Of a DNA stretch of 64,000 nt, positions 27,550-36,452 are shown in pieces. The stretch is taken from positions 1-64,000 of the forward strand of contig VGBZ01000004.1 in the NCBI GenBank assembly GCA_016870275.1, written 5' to 3'. This DNA comes from Actinomycetota bacterium. GTDB taxonomy: Bacteria > Actinomycetota > Acidimicrobiia > Acidimicrobiales > Microtrichaceae. A program made the translations under genes and the position numbers. Below the pieces are notes generated by a model, which had not been told where the DNA came from, ran no database searches, and saw nothing but the letters and a program-made list of their open reading frames with translations. The number at the start of each line of letters is the position of its first letter. Positions within the stretch are counted from its first letter, which is position 1.

Positions 27550-28569
27550 TCACGCCGAGGTCGAGGGTTCAGAGGAGCGATGAGTGGTGCGCCAGGTCCG
27601 GAGCACGGACGAGATGAGCTCAGCGAGCTCGTGGGCGGGGACCGCAACGATCTGTGAGCGAGTGAGGCTGAGTTCTACCGCCGGGCAGCGGGTACCTCGG
27701 AGTCGGATTCCTGAGCCGCCGGTGGTGTGGACCGGCGGGCCGTCGCCGGCGATTCGGTTGACCCCTGCGGCGAGCGCCTCGGCGAGTTGTCGACCGGCCA
27801 CCGAAACGAACCCTCCGGAAGTTTCGTAGTACCTGACCTCGGCTGAATCCGAGCAGGTCACGTGGATGAAGACCTCGAGACCGAGGTCGTTGCAGACCTG
27901 GATCTGAGCGGCGGGCTCACCGGCGACGAGTCGGATGCGCCCGTCGGCGTCGACGAGGTGTCGGTGGACGCTGCGGCCGAGTGACTCTGCGTCGTCACCG
28001 GCGATCACGCCGATCCCGTACTCGAGGTCGTCGGTCGGTACGAGGAGGAGGAACTCACTCTCCCAGACCTCGGCGAGTGAGCGGCCCGATGGGACACGGG
28101 AAGTGAGGTCGACGAGCAACTCGCGGGTTTCGGGACCACACACCCGGTCCTCGATCAGTCCGGTGTTCCGCTGGAACGCACCCACTGAGGATTCCGTTTC
28201 CGGCCCGAAGATTCCGTCGATCCGACTGCGGTGGAACCCGAGCACGCTGAGTCGCTGTTGCAACTCCTCCACGTCGGCGCCTTCGAGAACGGGCCACTGG
28301 AGGTACAGCAGGCGCTCGTCGTTTCGTCGGTCCGGGTCGAACAGCGGATGCCCGAGGTCGGCGAGCGATGTCCATGTCTCGGGGTCGACCGCCCCCGACG
28401 GCTCGACGCCGATCGACCTTTGGAACGCTTCGACTCCGGCACGCGTTCGTGGACCGAAGGAGCTGTCGACCACTCCGTCGTAGAGCGAACGGGACCTCAG
28501 CAACCGCTGGATCCGGGCGACCGTGTCCCCCTCGTCCCCTACCGCAACGGGAAGGAGCGGTCCGTCCAC
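27550..28569 (-). CDS. CwlM-like peptidoglycan amidase homologue
   Basis: The 339-residue protein has two peptidoglycan-binding repeats (RIQRLLRSRSLYDGVVDSSFG and ELQQRLSVLGFHRSRIDGIFG, each with FGP.T...V.AFQ). An Amidase_3-like domain follows. The order trxB-trxA-cwlM beside parAB is the same as in mycobacteria. Zinc ligands look lost: the DPGHGG motif reads VPTDDLEYG, and the FISIHAN motif reads FIHVTCS; the late Glu (CPAVE) remains. I infer a regulatory pseudo-amidase, as proposed for mycobacterial CwlM, which activates MurA when phosphorylated. The GTG at 28569, 25 bases after the trxA stop, is the first plausible start. Confidence 0.8.
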   Translation of the reverse strand: MDGPLLPVAVGDEGDTVARIQRLLRSRSLYDGVVDSSFGPRTRAGVEAFQRSIGVEPSGAVDPETWTSLADLGHPLFDPDRRNDERLLYLQWPVLEGADVEELQQRLSVLGFHRSRIDGIFGPETESSVGAFQRNTGLIEDRVCGPETRELLVDLTSRVPSGRSLAEVWESEFLLLVPTDDLEYGIGVIAGDDAESLGRSVHRHLVDADGRIRLVAGEPAAQIQVCNDLGLEVFIHVTCSDSAEVRYYETSGGFVSVAGRQLAEALAAGVNRIAGDGPPVHTTGGSGIRLRGTRCPAVELSLTRSQIVAVPAHELAELISSVLRTWRTTHRSSEPSTSA

Positions 28570-28594
28570 GACGTGCTGGCTGACGAGATGTCGT

Positions 28595-28915
28595 TCAGGA
28601 GAGTTTGGCGAGGACGTCGAGGAATGTCTGCTTCGGGTGGGCGCCGACGAGCGAGTTGACGATCTCCCCATCTTTGAAAACGATGAAAAATGGGATACTC
28701 GACACATTGAACGATCGTGCGAGATCCGGGTACGTGTCCACGTTCAACTTGGCGATCGTGACCGTCTGCGGGTTCTCCTCGGCGATCTCGGCGAGTGTGG
28801 GAGCGACCATGCGGCACGGTCCGCACCATTCGGCCCAGAAGTCGACGAGGACGGGTACGTCGGATCCCTTGACGACCTCGTCGAAGGTGTCGGCGGTGAG
28901 TTCAATGACGGTCAT
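28595..28915 (-). CDS. trxA: thioredoxin
   Basis: This 106-residue thioredoxin has active site WCGPC (Cys31 and Cys34) in FWAEWCGPCRMVAPTL and the cis-Pro motif VSSIPFFIVFKDG. It reduces disulfides in the cytoplasm and is recycled by the thioredoxin reductase encoded upstream. The ATG has AAAGG nine bases before it. The CwlM-like gene follows closely on the same strand. Confidence 0.97.
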   Translation of the reverse strand: MTVIELTADTFDEVVKGSDVPVLVDFWAEWCGPCRMVAPTLAEIAEENPQTVTIAKLNVDTYPDLARSFNVSSIPFFIVFKDGEIVNSLVGAHPKQTFLDVLAKLS

Positions 28916-30478: not shown

Positions 30479-31402
30479 TCACAGAGGTCGGCACGAGACC
30501 GAGTCGTACAGGATGACGGCTCCTCCGGCATCGAGGACCACGAGCACGGGCACGACCCGGTCACTCACCGTCACCAATCCGGTTGCCGACCCGAGTGAGG
30601 ACAGGGATGGACACTTCGACTTGGCGTCTCCGGGACCACTCCCCACCCCGAGCGAGGCAATGACCGGCGGCGTGGGCGATGAGGAGCCGGAGACCACGAG
30701 GTCATTGAGTCGCTCGGACAGAACGCCTGCAGTCACGACCGGAACTGCGAGCGGGCCACACGGCGTCGACCCGGTCGTGACCCACCGGCTGTCAGGGAGT
30801 ACTGCGATCATGAAGCAGTCGGAGAGTGCACCGCGAGCGGATCCACTCAGGGCGGTTCCCTCGGTTGCCTCCCCGGGCACCGCCTCACCGGACATGCCAG
30901 AGACCTCGATCGCCGTCGTCGGGGGGTTCGTCGATGGGGCGCTGGCGCTCGACTTGGCCGGACCTCCGTCGGGCGCCAACGCATCGACTTCGCCCCGTGC
31001 CGGCCCCGCAGCGGTGTTCGTGTTCGAGTTCTCGGTCGCAGCCGAGCCCGTGGCGAGCACGTCACCCTGGTCGGAGGTGCGAAACAGCGACAGCGATCCG
31101 ACCACGATCAGGGAGATCGCAGCAACGGCACCGATGGCTCCGACCACCTGCCGGTTTCGATCCCTCCGGCGAGCGGCGAGCGACTCGATCTCCGTGGCCA
31201 CGTCGGCGTGCGGATCGGGGTCGGTTGCGAGCACGGCCCTGACTCCGGCGAACTCCTCGAGTCGGGAGCGGAGTGCCGGATCTCCAGCGACTTGTTCGAG
31301 TTCTGCAGGTGTGGCCTCACCGTCGAGGACGGCGGAGACGGCTTCGTCGTCGGCACGATCGGCGTCGTCGTCCCGGGGCGGCTGAGGTGGTGGCGTGGTC
31401 AT
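30479..31402 (-). CDS. probable membrane anti-sigma factor
   Basis: The protein has 307 residues. The cytosolic N-terminus (DEAVSAVLDGEATPAELEQV) looks like the short sigma-binding domain of the actinobacterial SigM anti-sigma proteins. One membrane helix (VVGAIGAVAAISLIVVGSL) leads to an extracellular region rich in Ala/Ser/Thr/Gly, which ends in VVPVLVVLDAGGAVILYDS. The ATG overlaps the sigma-factor stop (ATGA). This pairing, as in Rv3911-Rv3912, is the main reason for the call. No HxxxCxxC zinc motif is present. Confidence 0.75.
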   Translation of the reverse strand: MTTPPPQPPRDDDADRADDEAVSAVLDGEATPAELEQVAGDPALRSRLEEFAGVRAVLATDPDPHADVATEIESLAARRRDRNRQVVGAIGAVAAISLIVVGSLSLFRTSDQGDVLATGSAATENSNTNTAAGPARGEVDALAPDGGPAKSSASAPSTNPPTTAIEVSGMSGEAVPGEATEGTALSGSARGALSDCFMIAVLPDSRWVTTGSTPCGPLAVPVVTAGVLSERLNDLVVSGSSSPTPPVIASLGVGSGPGDAKSKCPSLSSLGSATGLVTVSDRVVPVLVVLDAGGAVILYDSVSCRPL

Positions 31403-32061
31403 GCTGGGGTGTCGTCCGGTTCGGGGAGCAGGTTCGCTCCAGGGTGTGGGACGAACGCCGACCCGGGATGGTTCCATCCCGGTGTGTTCCGCAGGACCTC
31501 GGCGAGACGAGAGCGGCCCCGTGCGATGCGTGAGCGCACGGTTCCCACCGGGACGCCGAGTTCAGCGGCGATCGTGGCGTAGTCGAGGTCGGCGACGTCA
31601 CGCAGCACCACTGCTTCGGCGAGCGCCTCCGGGAGTTGGCCGAGGGCCGTGATCAACTCCGTCCGAGTCTCCTGATCCTCCGAGGTTCGTTCCGGGCCGG
31701 CTCCGGGATCGACCCGCCGCTCGTCGACCATGGACTCAGCGGCGTCCTCGACGGGCACCGGCCGTCGGCTGCGGCGTCGGAGTTCGTCGAGGGCACGGTT
31801 GGTGGCGATCCGGTGGATCCACGTGCTCAGTGAGGATCGCCCGTCGAATGTCCGGAGGCCGACGTTGATCGACGCCAAGGCGTCCTGTGCAGCGTCCTCG
31901 GCATCATGAGGCGATCGGCAGACCTGGCGACAGACCCGTCGGACCTGCGGCTGGTAACGCCGGAGGATCTCTGCGGCGGCCAGGGCGTCACCGCTGCGAG
32001 CACGTTCGATCAGATGATCGTCGCCGAGGTTCTCCAGGGCCGCTCGGCTCCGACGGCGCAT
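31399..32061 (-). CDS. ECF sigma factor, SigM-like
   Basis: The 220-residue sigma factor has regions 2 and 4 only. Region 2 includes DAEDAAQDALASI and FDGRSSLSTWIHRIATNRALDELR. Region 4 has DLDYATIAAELGVPVGTVRSRIARGR. The position after the kinase gene and before an anti-sigma gene, trxB and trxA is that of mycobacterial sigM. It probably answers envelope or redox stress, with the downstream membrane protein as its inhibitor (inference). Confidence 0.92.
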   Translation of the reverse strand: MRRRSRAALENLGDDHLIERARSGDALAAAEILRRYQPQVRRVCRQVCRSPHDAEDAAQDALASINVGLRTFDGRSSLSTWIHRIATNRALDELRRRSRRPVPVEDAAESMVDERRVDPGAGPERTSEDQETRTELITALGQLPEALAEAVVLRDVADLDYATIAAELGVPVGTVRSRIARGRSRLAEVLRNTPGWNHPGSAFVPHPGANLLPEPDDTPA

Positions 32062-32072
32062 CGTGGGCCGAC

Positions 32073-33635
32073 TCAGCCCTGAGCCGGTCGCCCAGCAGCG
32101 GAGAACTCGTCGATCTGGACTCGGTGTCCGCCGTCGGCCGGGTCACCGAGTTGGGTGATCCACAACAGGATGATCCTCCCGGTCGCTCCGCCGGTGGCCA
32201 GGTCGAGCGTGCCACGAACGTCCTGGACAACGGCCGCAGGGCTGATGGTCCCGAGGTCGATCGATTCGGCGGCCTCGCCGTCGATCACGTAGATCGAACC
32301 GTTCCAACCGTTGTCGCTCGACTCGATTCGCACACGTTCGACCTCTGAGCGTGACTCGAGCACCAGCGCCACGCCGACACCCGACTTGGTGCCGAAGAAT
32401 CCTGGTTCGTCGTAGATCTCGGTTCGCCAGCCGGTGGTTGGATCGCCGTCGGCGGCATTTGCAGCCAGGTCGTCGTTCTCGCCCTTGGTGCCGCTGCCCT
32501 GGGGGTCGAACGTCGCCACTCGGGCCACAGCGAGAGGGTCGAGCTCGTCTGGAGGCGGTGCCTGCGTCACCGACGTCACGGGTCCGGTCGACCGGGACTC
32601 GTTGACGAGGAGTCCGGCCACGGTGACTGCCGCAGCGACGATCAGGATCAACAGGGTCGGAAGGAGCCAACCTCGCTCCGACCGGGAGAACGACTTCGGC
32701 GGTTCCTCGATCAGCTGCACTGCGGTGGCCGGCTCGAACCCGGTCGGCGGTCCGGGGATGTGGATGTTGCCCCCCATCAGAGCCGCTCGAAAGTCCGCCG
32801 CAGAGGCGAAGCGGGCGGTCCGGTCGACGGCGAGCGCCGTCACGAGGACCTCGGCGAGATGCGGTGGTACGTCGACGCGGAGTTGGCGGGGGTCGACCGG
32901 GGCCGAGTGGAGCCGGGCGATCGCCACCGCAGCAGGGCTGTCGCCGGCGAACGGGATCCGACCGGTGGTGCACTCGTAGAGCACGACGGCGAGCGAGTAG
33001 AGGTCGGACCGTCCGTCGAGTTCCTCGCCCTGCACCTGTTCAGGCGAGAGGTACGACGCCGTTCCGATGAGCGACCCCTCCTGGGTGAGATCGGTGTGCC
33101 CCTCGGCGAGGGCGATTCCGAAGTCGGCGAGCTTCACCCGACCGTCGCGGCAGAGCAGGATGTTCGACGGCTTGATGTCGCGGTGCACGATCTCGGCGCG
33201 GTGCGCCGCTTCGAGGGCATCGAGGACGCGGAGTCCGATGCGCTCGGTGGTGGCGGCGTCGAGCGTGGAGTTGGCATCGAGCAGATCGCGCAGCGTCGTT
33301 GCATCGAGCAACTCCATGATGATCGCTTCGTGGTCCTCATCGGTGAACGTGTCGAAGACCCCGACGACTCCCGGATCGTTGATCTGCGCCGCAGCCTTGG
33401 CCTCACGCCGGAAACGCTCGACGAACAGAGGATCGCAGGCCAGGTGCGGATGGAGCAGCTTCACTGCGACCCGGCGTGCGAGCAGGGTGTCGGTTCCTTC
33501 CCAGACCTGCGCCATCCCACCGGATCCGATGAGCCGATCGAGGCGGTAGCGCGACCCCAGGACGAGACCGGCGAGTCCAGCGGCCGACGAAGCAATCGGG
33601 ACGTTGCCGGACTCCCCGACGCGCGTCTCATCCAC
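32073..33635 (-). CDS. membrane Ser/Thr protein kinase with extracellular domain
   Basis: The 520-residue protein has an N-terminal Hanks-type kinase: GSGGMAQVW glycine loop, VAVK lysine, HRDIKPSN catalytic loop, DFGIA and SPEQ. All key residues are kept, so it should be active. A single membrane helix (LLPTLLILIVAAAVTVAGLLV) precedes an extracellular domain. That domain has the F5/8-type, galactose-binding-like pattern (DGDPTTGWRTEIYDEPGF ... VERVRIESSDNGWNGSIYV). The same kinase-like plus extracellular layout forms the C-terminal half of mycobacterial MurJ/MviN (Rv3910). Here the MurJ part is absent. The GTG start overlaps the DUF6049 gene by eight bases. Confidence 0.92.
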   Translation of the reverse strand: MDETRVGESGNVPIASSAAGLAGLVLGSRYRLDRLIGSGGMAQVWEGTDTLLARRVAVKLLHPHLACDPLFVERFRREAKAAAQINDPGVVGVFDTFTDEDHEAIIMELLDATTLRDLLDANSTLDAATTERIGLRVLDALEAAHRAEIVHRDIKPSNILLCRDGRVKLADFGIALAEGHTDLTQEGSLIGTASYLSPEQVQGEELDGRSDLYSLAVVLYECTTGRIPFAGDSPAAVAIARLHSAPVDPRQLRVDVPPHLAEVLVTALAVDRTARFASAADFRAALMGGNIHIPGPPTGFEPATAVQLIEEPPKSFSRSERGWLLPTLLILIVAAAVTVAGLLVNESRSTGPVTSVTQAPPPDELDPLAVARVATFDPQGSGTKGENDDLAANAADGDPTTGWRTEIYDEPGFFGTKSGVGVALVLESRSEVERVRIESSDNGWNGSIYVIDGEAAESIDLGTISPAAVVQDVRGTLDLATGGATGRIILLWITQLGDPADGGHRVQIDEFSAAGRPAQG

Positions 33636-35742
33636 GGGCGTCGACGCTATCTTCGCTGCGGGAGTCGGTGGATGTCACCGACTCGCTCGGATGGCGGCCC
33701 TCGGTCCGACGGGCACGTCGGCGGCGCTTGCGGATCGTCGAGATCCACCACCCGGCGAGTATGACGAGCGAGATGATCGACAGAGCGGCACCGACACCCG
33801 AGAACCGGGTCGCCTGAACCTGACGCTCGAACGAGGCGATCCCGACGCTGCCGTCCGGCGAGATCACATCGAAGCGGATCGTTGACTCGCCGCTCGCTCG
33901 CACGGTGACCGGGAGCTCGATCACGTTGTCGCCCGGTTCGAGTCGCAACAGTTGACGGTCGCCGTCGTCGAACTCGATCCGGTTGCTGCGGATCCGGAGT
34001 TCCACGTCGACGGGGTAGGGGAGCGTGTTGTCGAAACGCAGGGGAATGGCGGACTGCTGGCTGCCGAGGACGAGCGACGAGTCTCCCGGAGAGATGATCC
34101 GGTCGAGGATGACTCGCGACTGCGAAGCGATTGCGGAGTGGGTCGCGCTGCGGGTCGCCGCATCCATTGACTCGGACATGCTCTGGGTGTTGAGCAGCGT
34201 CCAGGTGTCGACGATCGGCTCGGAGATCCCGACGACGCTGCGCACACCGTCGATGGTCGTGAGCGAGGAACGGAATGCCGCCAAGGCCGGGGACTGATCG
34301 GGGGGTTCGGTCCCGGGCACGTTCGCCACTGCGTACTCGCCATCGATCGGGACCGCTGGTGGAGGTGCAGCTCGAGGTTCGGAACGCAGGACACCGCTTC
34401 CGTCGAGCGCCGGAGCGAGGGCGAGGAGGATCGCCGGGTCGATCATCGGTGGGACGAACATGAACGCCTGGGGTCCGGGGAACGCCGTTGGATCCAGGTC
34501 GACGACGCTGAACCACTGTGCGGCGAGTTCGGTCGAGACGCGGTTTGCGGCCACACCCGGGTCAGCTGCGGTGTCGAGTGATTGAAGGGCGAGGAGGGGA
34601 TCCTCGGCGATCACGGTGAGTGGCGTGAACGGTGGCTCCTCGGTGACGTCCGGTTGGGCATTGGCGAGCACCATGGTTCGCCAGAGGGCCTCAGGGTCGT
34701 CCACGTCGCCGGGCCGGATGATTCGATCTGCGGGCAGCACGATCCGTCGGACGCCGAGTCCGTCGAGGGCCGGGAGCGACTCCGGGGAGAGCGAGTCGTC
34801 AAGAACCCACGTGTGGTCGACCGGTATCTGCAGCGTCCCGCTCTCCAGCACCTCGCTGCCGACGACGAGCAGATCCTCGAGCACGTCGAGTCCGTTGGCG
34901 GCAATGATTCCGCCGGTGTCGACCGGGACGTCGGTCCGGCGGACGCTCACGCCCCGCAGGCCCGGCTGTTGCAGCGCAGATGCCAGCGCCACCGCTGAGG
35001 GTGTCTCGGATCGGTCGAGGCCGGAGAGCAGGTTCGGTTCGATCGCCAGGGTGAAGGGGAAGTCGGGAACGGCCTCGAGCAGTCCGCTCACGGCGTTGAT
35101 GTTCGGGATGATGTCCTCAGGGATGTCAGCTCGTCCGTCCGGTGCGAGTGTGGGCGGGCTGTCGAGAGCCAGAGCGACGGTGACGGCGAGTTCGGCGGGC
35201 CGGCCGTCACGGCCGATTGGACGCTCACTCGGGGGTCGCACCAGGAACACGGTCCGGTTCCACAGGTCGCTGCCATCGGGACCCACCAGATCGAGTGACA
35301 CCGGGATGATGCCGTCGGTCGGGAGGACGATCGCCTGCGGATCGCCCTCGTCGCTGTCGGTCACCGGGAGGGTCACCGCCCAACCGGCGAGCGGGTTGCC
35401 GAGCAGTCCGTCGGGAATCCTCACGGGTCGGCGGATTGTGTTACCGGGTGCTGCTCCCGCCGAGATCCGGTTGACCCTGTCCCGCAGGTTCGCTCGGCCG
35501 CTGATCAGGCGGTGGAAGCGGATCTCGAGCACCGATCCCGGAGGAACGGCATCGGTCGGTTCGAACCGGAGTTCGAAGGAACCGACCGGGGGGACGAAGG
35601 GGGAGACCGAACGCAGACGGAGGCCGACGGCGTCGGCCGGAGCTGCTGGAGAATCCTGGGCGCCGACACCTTCGGCTCCCGCAATGGCGAAGATGCCCAG
35701 GGCGACGAGGAGGCTGAGCCGCAGAACGGTCGAGCGGATCAC
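33628..35742 (-). CDS. DUF6049-type large secreted/membrane protein
   Basis: This 704-residue protein has a signal sequence (VLRLSLLVALGIFAIAGAEGVGAQ), a long extracellular part, and a C-terminal membrane helix (AALSIISLVILAGWWIS) followed by a basic tail. This layout and its place match the conserved actinobacterial Rv3909 group (DUF6049). The middle region has alternating beta-like and alpha-like stretches such as VALALDSPPTLAPDG and DFPFTLAIEPNLLSGL, reminiscent of polysaccharide-deacetylase-type barrels, but no catalytic motif is evident. The GTG at 35742 overlaps the stop of the GNAT gene (GTGA). Confidence 0.75.
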   Translation of the reverse strand: MIRSTVLRLSLLVALGIFAIAGAEGVGAQDSPAAPADAVGLRLRSVSPFVPPVGSFELRFEPTDAVPPGSVLEIRFHRLISGRANLRDRVNRISAGAAPGNTIRRPVRIPDGLLGNPLAGWAVTLPVTDSDEGDPQAIVLPTDGIIPVSLDLVGPDGSDLWNRTVFLVRPPSERPIGRDGRPAELAVTVALALDSPPTLAPDGRADIPEDIIPNINAVSGLLEAVPDFPFTLAIEPNLLSGLDRSETPSAVALASALQQPGLRGVSVRRTDVPVDTGGIIAANGLDVLEDLLVVGSEVLESGTLQIPVDHTWVLDDSLSPESLPALDGLGVRRIVLPADRIIRPGDVDDPEALWRTMVLANAQPDVTEEPPFTPLTVIAEDPLLALQSLDTAADPGVAANRVSTELAAQWFSVVDLDPTAFPGPQAFMFVPPMIDPAILLALAPALDGSGVLRSEPRAAPPPAVPIDGEYAVANVPGTEPPDQSPALAAFRSSLTTIDGVRSVVGISEPIVDTWTLLNTQSMSESMDAATRSATHSAIASQSRVILDRIISPGDSSLVLGSQQSAIPLRFDNTLPYPVDVELRIRSNRIEFDDGDRQLLRLEPGDNVIELPVTVRASGESTIRFDVISPDGSVGIASFERQVQATRFSGVGAALSIISLVILAGWWISTIRKRRRRARRTEGRHPSESVTSTDSRSEDSVDARG

Positions 35743-36452
35743 GACAGGATGAGACGGAGGACGACGAGATCGCTCGGCGTGGTTTGGAAACCGAGGTGTC
35801 GGTACAGGGCGAGCGCTCGCTCGTTGTCGACCTGAGTGTTCACGAGGAGCCGCCGGCAGCGCCGGTGTGCCCAGACCATGGCGTCGACGCACAGCGCCGT
35901 GGCGAGACCGCGACCCTGGTGGTCGGGGTCGGTGGCGAGACGCTGGAGAAAGGCCTGGTTTCCGCTGCGCCCGGTGATGGCGTACGCAGCCACTCCGTCG
36001 GGAGCGTCGATCACCCGGAACCGGACCGAGGGGGTGGCTGACTCGGCGTCGCCCAGCGTGGTCTCGTCGAGTTGCCAGAAGTCGGGGAACGCCCGACGGT
36101 CGACCTGCAGCGCCACTGGCCGGTCACCTCGACGGGCGCGTCGCATTCGGTACCCCGGCGGGACCACCGGGTCGGCCCGGGAGCCGGAGAGCTCGACGGA
36201 GAGAACGCAGAGGCGGTCGAATTCCTCGAATCCGCACCGGAGGAACGGACCGGTCTCATCGACGTGCAGCGCAGAGGTGATGATCGATTGGTACCCCGAC
36301 CGGGCGAGTTGTTCCACGCACGCGCGCAGGCCGTCCTCCCGAACACGTGACGTGGACGGAGTGAGGGCCAGGTACGCCGTCTCCGGGTCGGCGTGCCACG
36401 GGCCGACTCGGTAACGATCACGCCCCAGAGTGAGGGTGGCTCGAGATGTCAT
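35739..36452 (-). CDS. GNAT family N-acetyltransferase
   Basis: The 237-residue protein has a C-terminal GNAT fold: LATDPDHQGRGLATALCVDA is the acetyl-CoA-binding motif A, and NTQVDNERALALYRHLGFQ is motif B. The N-terminal 100 residues are family-specific and may form a second, diverged GNAT half. The acceptor is unknown; proteins and small amines are both possible. It heads the minus-strand operon with DUF6049 and the kinase. A TACGCT box lies 18 bases before the ATG. Confidence 0.85.
   Translation of the reverse strand: MTSRATLTLGRDRYRVGPWHADPETAYLALTPSTSRVREDGLRACVEQLARSGYQSIITSALHVDETGPFLRCGFEEFDRLCVLSVELSGSRADPVVPPGYRMRRARRGDRPVALQVDRRAFPDFWQLDETTLGDAESATPSVRFRVIDAPDGVAAYAITGRSGNQAFLQRLATDPDHQGRGLATALCVDAMVWAHRRCRRLLVNTQVDNERALALYRHLGFQTTPSDLVVLRLILS

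What the first reader, a model, noticed from the sequence alone, without database searches (positions are those of the whole stretch)
32073..35742. MurJ is missing where a kinase with MurJ-tail architecture remains
In mycobacteria the gene between the DUF6049 gene and sigM encodes MurJ fused to a pseudokinase and an extracellular sugar-binding-like domain. Here the DUF6049 gene overlaps directly with a stand-alone protein that has only the kinase, one helix and the extracellular domain. The kinase motifs (VAVK, HRD, DFG) are intact. The lipid II flippase must be elsewhere or replaced, and the kinase may be an active regulator instead of a scaffold.
Basis: partly seen in the sequence, partly recalled or inferred. 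Interest (0 to 1): 0.62.

Follow-up and report, generated by a model that had tools for sequence, protein, structure and literature searches.

The report
Free-standing active-looking cousin of MurJ's tail
In this uncultured actinobacterium the wall-building flippase MurJ has simply moved to another place in the genome, while the kinase that mycobacteria carry as a dead, fused tail on MurJ stays behind as its own gene with an intact catalytic centre, and being a separate gene is the usual state outside a few lineages.

Summary
At 32,073-33,635 (minus strand) a 520-aa protein (kinase, one helix, extracellular domain) starts inside the stop of a DUF6049 gene, all catalytic residues are present, and no MurJ lies between DUF6049 and sigM. 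The reading needs changing. (1) MurJ is not missing: the genome has two MurJ-family genes; the one beside obg-proB belongs to the clade of the MurJ found between DUF6049 and the kinase in other Acidimicrobiia, so it relocated. (2) Separate is normal: in sampled class (60) and order (98) genomes the kinase was never fused to MurJ, and it is a separate murJ neighbour in Nocardiopsis, Amycolatopsis, Aeromicrobium and others. Fusion looks derived (Mycobacteriales, a few other lineages). (3) Homology to the MurJ tail is real: a profile of the acidimicrobial ectodomain finds mycobacterial MurJ tails at 78-89 bits, not PASTA kinases. (4) The kinase looks active in Acidimicrobiia and dead in Actinomycetes, fused or not. 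The ectodomain models as a CBM32/F5-8C fold. Best reading: a single-copy transmembrane Ser/Thr receptor kinase for wall glycan, sharing ancestry with the mycobacterial MurJ pseudokinase tail. Activity, ligand and substrates are untested.

The parts
32073..33635 (-). Stand-alone transmembrane Ser/Thr kinase, 520 aa: kinase about 25-290, helix 322-347, CBM32-like ectodomain about 371-515
   Evidence: PF00069 146 bits; NF033483 PknB type 342 bits, below its 450 cut-off; catalytic residues; helix; AlphaFold pLDDT 81.9 whole, 93.5 for the ectodomain
32766..33563 (-). Kinase domain, residues 25-290
   Evidence: Profile match to residues 25-290; Foldseek: PknB/PknA kinase domains, E to 3.6e-28, about 40% identity; dN/dS 0.14-0.17 against the three nearest relatives, 0.29 against a fourth
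32076..32540 (-). Extracellular domain, residues 366-520, F5/8 type C (CBM32) fold
   Evidence: VIA-align Z 16.1, rmsd 2.1 over 126 residues to a chitosan-binding module; profile finds mycobacterial MurJ tails at 78-89 bits
33628..35892 (-). DUF6049 protein, 754 aa, upstream partner in the operon
   Evidence: PF19516 36.3 bits; overlaps the kinase start by 8 nt
31399..32061 (-). ECF sigma factor, SigM-like
   Evidence: Best NCBIfam match SigM PRK09643, 120.6 bits, below its cut-off of 190; starts 11 nt after the kinase stop
30479..31477 (-). Putative anti-sigma protein, overlapping sigM
   Evidence: Position and sequence only; no Pfam or NCBIfam match
35739..36452 (-). GNAT acetyltransferase, conserved neighbour of DUF6049
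   Evidence: PF00583 50.8 bits; same position in most class loci

Best explanation
This is a single-copy transmembrane Ser/Thr receptor kinase of the cell-wall operon DUF6049-(murJ)-(degV)-kinase-sigM. It is the free-standing, catalytically intact relative of the pseudokinase-plus-ectodomain tail of mycobacterial MurJ (MviN). Shown here: the architecture, homology of the ectodomain, conserved catalytic residues under purifying selection, its never being fused in the class or order genomes sampled, and relocation of the orthologous murJ to the obg-proB site with no degV found in this genome. Inferred: the CBM32-like ectodomain binds a peptidoglycan or other wall glycan outside the cell, which dimerises or stabilises the kinase, and the kinase phosphorylates wall-synthesis partners in trans (candidates: MurJ, FhaA, the CwlM-like protein, the SigM/anti-sigma pair). 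In Actinomycetes the same gene lost catalysis, and in Mycobacteriales and a few other lineages it was fused to murJ, leaving a docking scaffold that PknB phosphorylates.
For: Ectodomain profile built only from acidimicrobial kinases scores 78-89 bits on mycobacterial MurJ tails, 56-97 bits on separate homologues elsewhere in the phylum, and 2 bits or less on PASTA-type kinases. K, E, HRD, N, DFG and the PknB T171-equivalent are intact in 22 of 23 acidimicrobial site kinases including this one; they are lost in the Actinomycete copies, separate and fused. Site kinases and MurJ-tail pseudokinases fall together apart from PASTA-type kinases, 99/100. dN/dS is lowest in the kinase domain, 0.14-0.17 for three relatives. 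One ectodomain copy in 64 of 98 order genomes, never in a MurJ ORF. MurJ at obg-proB nests in the clade of DUF6049-site MurJ, SH-aLRT 95, apart from the mctB-site paralogue, 99. FhaA_N and a PknB-type locus are present in the genome. Separate kinase-ectodomain genes next to MurJ in named Nocardiopsis, Streptomonospora, Amycolatopsis, Prauserella, Aeromicrobium and Marmoricola.
Against: No activity, ligand or substrate was measured. 34 of 98 order genomes show no such gene, so it is not an essential part of flipping lipid II. MurJ and the kinase are uncoupled in position in 38 of 86 order genomes, which weakens a one-to-one kinase-MurJ pairing. The direction active to dead rests on parsimony and an outgroup; the dead kinases are long branches and the deep nodes are unresolved.
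Confidence: 0.5

Rival explanations
1. The kinase is active but its output is the adjacent SigM/anti-sigma pair (a wall-stress switch), and MurJ is not a substrate; its past linkage to murJ is only shared wall-gene neighbourhood.
For: Kinase and sigM are directly adjacent in most loci, also where murJ has left; 11 nt gap here; position is uncoupled from murJ in 38 of 86 order genomes.
Against: In Actinomycetes the homologue is next to murJ or fused to it in many genera, which points to a functional tie with MurJ. Some loci keep the kinase with no sigM match beside it (low sensitivity).
Confidence: 0.22
2. It works as in mycobacteria: a scaffold that is phosphorylated by PknB after the kinase domain and recruits FhaA, with catalysis incidental.
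For: FhaA_N and a PknB-type locus are encoded; threonines follow the kinase domain (PPTGFEP).
Against: Every catalytic residue including the activation-loop threonine is retained over the class, and purifying selection is strongest in the kinase domain; a pure scaffold would not need that, as Actinomycete homologues show.
Confidence: 0.15
3. MurJ was truly lost and replaced by another flippase (Amj type).
For: No murJ in this operon.
Against: Two PF03023 genes in the same genome, the C26 one at obg-proB being the relocated orthologue; its intact copy in a congener matches solved MurJ structures, E 1.1e-33.
Confidence: 0.02
4. Assembly artefact or gene-loss remnant without function.
For: Draft genome in 137 contigs.
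Against: Same layout in four genomes of the family, no N in the window, dN/dS well below 1.
Confidence: 0.02

Closest known systems
MviN/MurJ tail of Mycobacterium tuberculosis (Rv3910; ActPs3 pseudokinase plus ectodomain)
   Same: Kinase fold, one helix, homologous ectodomain; same chromosomal site before sigM, trxB, trxA, cwlM, parB in mycobacterial relatives
   Different: Here a separate protein with all catalytic motifs kept; the mycobacterial one reads VALT, has no HRD or DFG and is fused to MurJ (PMC12599244)
PASTA-type PknB kinases (NF033483)
   Same: Nearest active kinase domain, about 40% identity to PknA/PknB structures; single-helix receptor layout
   Different: CBM32-like ectodomain in place of PASTA repeats; scores 342 bits against a cut-off of 450; separate branch; a PknB-type kinase is encoded elsewhere, at C8
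Separate pseudokinase-ectodomain genes next to murJ in Nocardiopsis, Amycolatopsis, Aeromicrobium and other Actinomycetes
   Same: Separate gene, same site, same ectodomain
   Different: Catalytic motifs lost there
Family 32 carbohydrate-binding modules (F5/8 type C fold)
   Same: Fold of the ectodomain, Z 16.1 to a chitosan-binding module
   Different: About 18% identity; ligand unknown; the window domain itself is below Pfam cut-offs

Membership tests
MviN-tail pseudokinases (ActPs3) | Degraded VAIK, HRD and DFG motifs | tested here: not met
   VAVK, HRDIKPSN and DFGIA all present
MviN-tail pseudokinases (ActPs3) | Fused C-terminal to MurJ (as in M. tuberculosis) | tested here: not met
   Separate ORF overlapping DUF6049; never fused in the order genomes sampled
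MviN-tail pseudokinases (ActPs3) | Helix plus homologous ectodomain after the kinase | tested here: met
   Ectodomain profile finds mycobacterial tails at 78-89 bits
MviN-tail pseudokinases (ActPs3) | PknB-phosphorylated Thr that binds the FhaA FHA domain | not testable with these tools
   Needs phosphopeptide binding; FhaA_N is encoded
PASTA Ser/Thr kinase (Stk1/PknB) | PknB-like catalytic domain | tested here: met
PASTA Ser/Thr kinase (Stk1/PknB) | Extracellular PASTA repeats | tested here: not met
   No PASTA match; the ectodomain is a CBM32-like sandwich
F5/8 type C / CBM32 domain | Galactose-binding-like beta sandwich | tested here: met
   Model pLDDT 93.5; Z 16.1
F5/8 type C / CBM32 domain | Sequence above a Pfam cut-off | tested here: inconclusive
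   27 of 32 homologues match F5_F8_type_C with E up to 1; the window itself matches only CBM_AftD at E 0.04, 13.9 bits against a cut-off of 27
MurJ lipid II flippase (gene on C26) | PF03023 over its cut-off and match to solved MurJ | tested here: met
   140.6 bits for the larger part; congener copy E 1.1e-33 to MurJ 7waw
MurJ lipid II flippase (gene on C26) | Conserved essential arginines of the cavity | not tested
   Part of the gene reads N in this genome

The most novel reading that the evidence does not exclude
The acidimicrobial kinase is an active wall-glycan receptor kinase that phosphorylates MurJ or its regulators in trans, the ancestral control circuit from which the mycobacterial MurJ pseudokinase scaffold evolved by catalytic decay and repeated fusion to murJ.
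Probability: 0.3. Interest if true: 0.65.

Novelty: new variant of a known kind. Interest (0 to 1): 0.42.

Why it matters
The MurJ pseudokinase tail is a regulator of wall synthesis in mycobacteria, and a recent study states that the extended domain appears only in organisms with arabinogalactan (PMC10166564). The module is in fact spread over the phylum as a separate gene and, in Acidimicrobiia and a few other lineages, keeps a complete catalytic centre. That gives a testable origin for the pseudokinase and a set of natural unfused, active-looking versions for finding its ligand and partners.

Tried and rejected
Rejected: MurJ loss or replacement; assembly artefact; PknB orthologue (no PASTA, separate branch, PknB-type kinase present elsewhere). 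PADLOC kinase hits (PD-T4-6 and others) are kinase-domain similarity only and the gene sits in a conserved housekeeping operon, so a defence role was not pursued. A genome-contig scan with a nine-row ectodomain alignment failed for lack of a conserved stretch; a four-row alignment worked. In the first order-level layout count the kinase threshold missed divergent copies; the count was redone with the ectodomain profile. A simple motif search labels G010 as lacking HRD, but the alignment shows it intact. Library searches gave no paper on a stand-alone MviN-tail homologue; the library is open-licence only, and the Gee 2012 paper itself is not held.

Full report
What is there. On the minus strand from 36,452 down to 30,479 the window holds GNAT - DUF6049 - kinase - SigM-like factor - putative anti-sigma protein, followed by trxB, trxA and a cwlM-like gene, with parB and parA beyond. 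The kinase start and the DUF6049 stop overlap in GTGGATGA. The kinase has 520 residues: a complete Pkinase domain, a hydrophobic helix at about 322-347 and a C-terminal domain. AlphaFold gives pLDDT 81.9 for the whole protein and 93.5 for the C-terminal domain alone.

MurJ is not missing from the genome. PF03023 finds two genes: C18, between mctB and a glycosyltransferase in the recN-steA-pyrG neighbourhood, and C26, beside obg, proB and pspA (these neighbour names are my reading of the ORFs). The C26 copy carries a 390-base N run that keeps the frame; the congener G246 has the same gene intact with 610 aa, and it matches solved MurJ structures with E to 1.1e-33. In a tree of 65 MurJ proteins the mctB-site genes form one clade (SH-aLRT 99), and all obg-site genes fall with the MurJ genes that sit right after DUF6049 in other Acidimicrobiia (95). 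So the flippase that once lay between DUF6049 and the kinase most likely moved to obg-proB. A degV gene, which lies between MurJ and the kinase in most relatives (naming by sequence), was not found anywhere in this genome.

The separate kinase is the rule. In the 60 class genomes, ORF-level maps of the site show three layouts: DUF6049-MurJ-DegV-kinase-sigM, DUF6049-(DegV)-kinase-sigM with MurJ elsewhere, and DUF6049-MurJ-DegV-sigM without kinase. No ORF holds both MurJ and kinase. In the order (98 genomes) DUF6049 was found in 86: 38 have the kinase but not MurJ after it, 13 have both, 27 have MurJ only (21 of them with no such kinase in the genome) and 8 have neither. All four genomes of the window's family, among them two that match named Microthrixaceae MAG contigs by length, share the window's layout. 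The ectodomain occurs once per genome in 64 of 98 and always in a frame of about 420-790 aa.

Relation to the mycobacterial MurJ tail. A profile of the ectodomain built from acidimicrobial kinases only scores 78-89 bits on mycobacterial-type MurJ C-termini and 2 bits or less on PASTA-type kinases. Phylum loci show MurJ and a kinase-ectodomain protein as separate neighbours in several families, and fused in family f47, which holds the mycobacterial-type layout. A named scan repeats this: separate in Nocardiopsis, Streptomonospora, Amycolatopsis, Prauserella, Aeromicrobium and Marmoricola; fused in Mycobacterium, Mycolicibacterium, Prescottella, Tomitella, a Tessaracoccus MAG, Winkia and a MAG titled Bifidobacterium breve. 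On an ectodomain tree the fused label needs four changes, three of them forced by well-supported branches, so fusion or fission happened more than once. This does not agree with the statement that the extended domain is confined to bacteria with arabinogalactan (PMC10166564, read), if the separate gene is counted.

Active or dead. In the alignment, beta-3 Lys, alpha-C Glu, HRD, the catalytic-loop Asn, DFG and the activation-loop Thr that matches PknB T171 are present in 22 of 23 acidimicrobial site kinases including this one; the exception is G009. Two genomes of another family (f37) have kept Lys but lost parts of HRD and DFG. The Actinomycete copies, separate or fused, have lost the motifs. 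Named loci with intact motifs also include a Solirubrobacterales MAG. In the kinase tree the site kinases and pseudokinases are separated from PASTA-type kinases (99/100), but the order within the group is poorly resolved and the pseudokinases are long branches. Between this protein and close relatives dN/dS is 0.14-0.17 in the kinase domain and 0.19-0.25 in the ectodomain for three relatives, and 0.29 and 0.43 for a fourth. That the active form is ancestral is an inference.

How it may work. The ectodomain is a F5/8 type C (CBM32) sandwich, closest in structure to chitosan-binding modules (Z 16.1, 126 residues, rmsd 2.1), and many homologues show weak Pfam matches to F5_F8_type_C and to an arabinofuranosyltransferase CBM. 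The fold suggests, but does not show, glycan binding. The kinase domain resembles PknB and PknA (about 40% identity). FhaA_N and a PknB-type locus with FHA, RodA-like and PBP-like genes are encoded on C8 (ORF names there are my reading apart from FhaA_N). In mycobacteria PknB phosphorylates the pseudokinase tail, which then binds FhaA and restrains wall synthesis (PMC12599244, PMC10166564). The best reading is a receptor kinase that senses wall glycan and signals to wall synthesis or to the adjacent SigM; which of the two is open.

Judgement. The surprise named in the finding (MurJ absent, kinase left over) dissolves: relocation of murJ, and a gene that is separate by default. What remains of interest is that the well-studied MurJ pseudokinase tail has a free-standing, single-copy, catalytically complete relative across Acidimicrobiia, which I found no paper describing in the open library searched.

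Noticed in passing
27550-28707: The cwlM-position protein has two peptidoglycan-binding domains, but its C-terminal part gives no amidase match, so it may be a diverged non-catalytic CwlM.
   Followed up: no
L260:4813-6423: A genome titled Mycolicibacterium iranicum has a stand-alone pseudokinase-ectodomain gene, 43% identical to a mycobacterial MurJ tail, with no MurJ sequence in the 12.4 kb locus: a possible paralogue of the tail.
   Followed up: partly
L190:6743-8242 and L192:5921-7447: In family f37 the separate kinase keeps Lys but has HGS or HRN for HRD and DFS for DFG, an intermediate between the active and dead forms.
   Followed up: partly
L124:2148-3224: G009 (same class) has a strongly decayed kinase at the site, apparently an independent loss of catalysis inside Acidimicrobiia.
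   Followed up: partly
L227:6674-7885: The obg-site MurJ of G274 (same family) was reported with one in-frame TAA in its match, perhaps a sequencing error.
   Followed up: no
L108:6275-10081: In G004 one open frame of 1268 aa spans the DUF6049 and MurJ regions, a possible DUF6049-MurJ fusion.
   Followed up: no
30479-31477: The protein after sigM, by position an anti-sigma factor, has no match in Pfam or NCBIfam.
   Followed up: no
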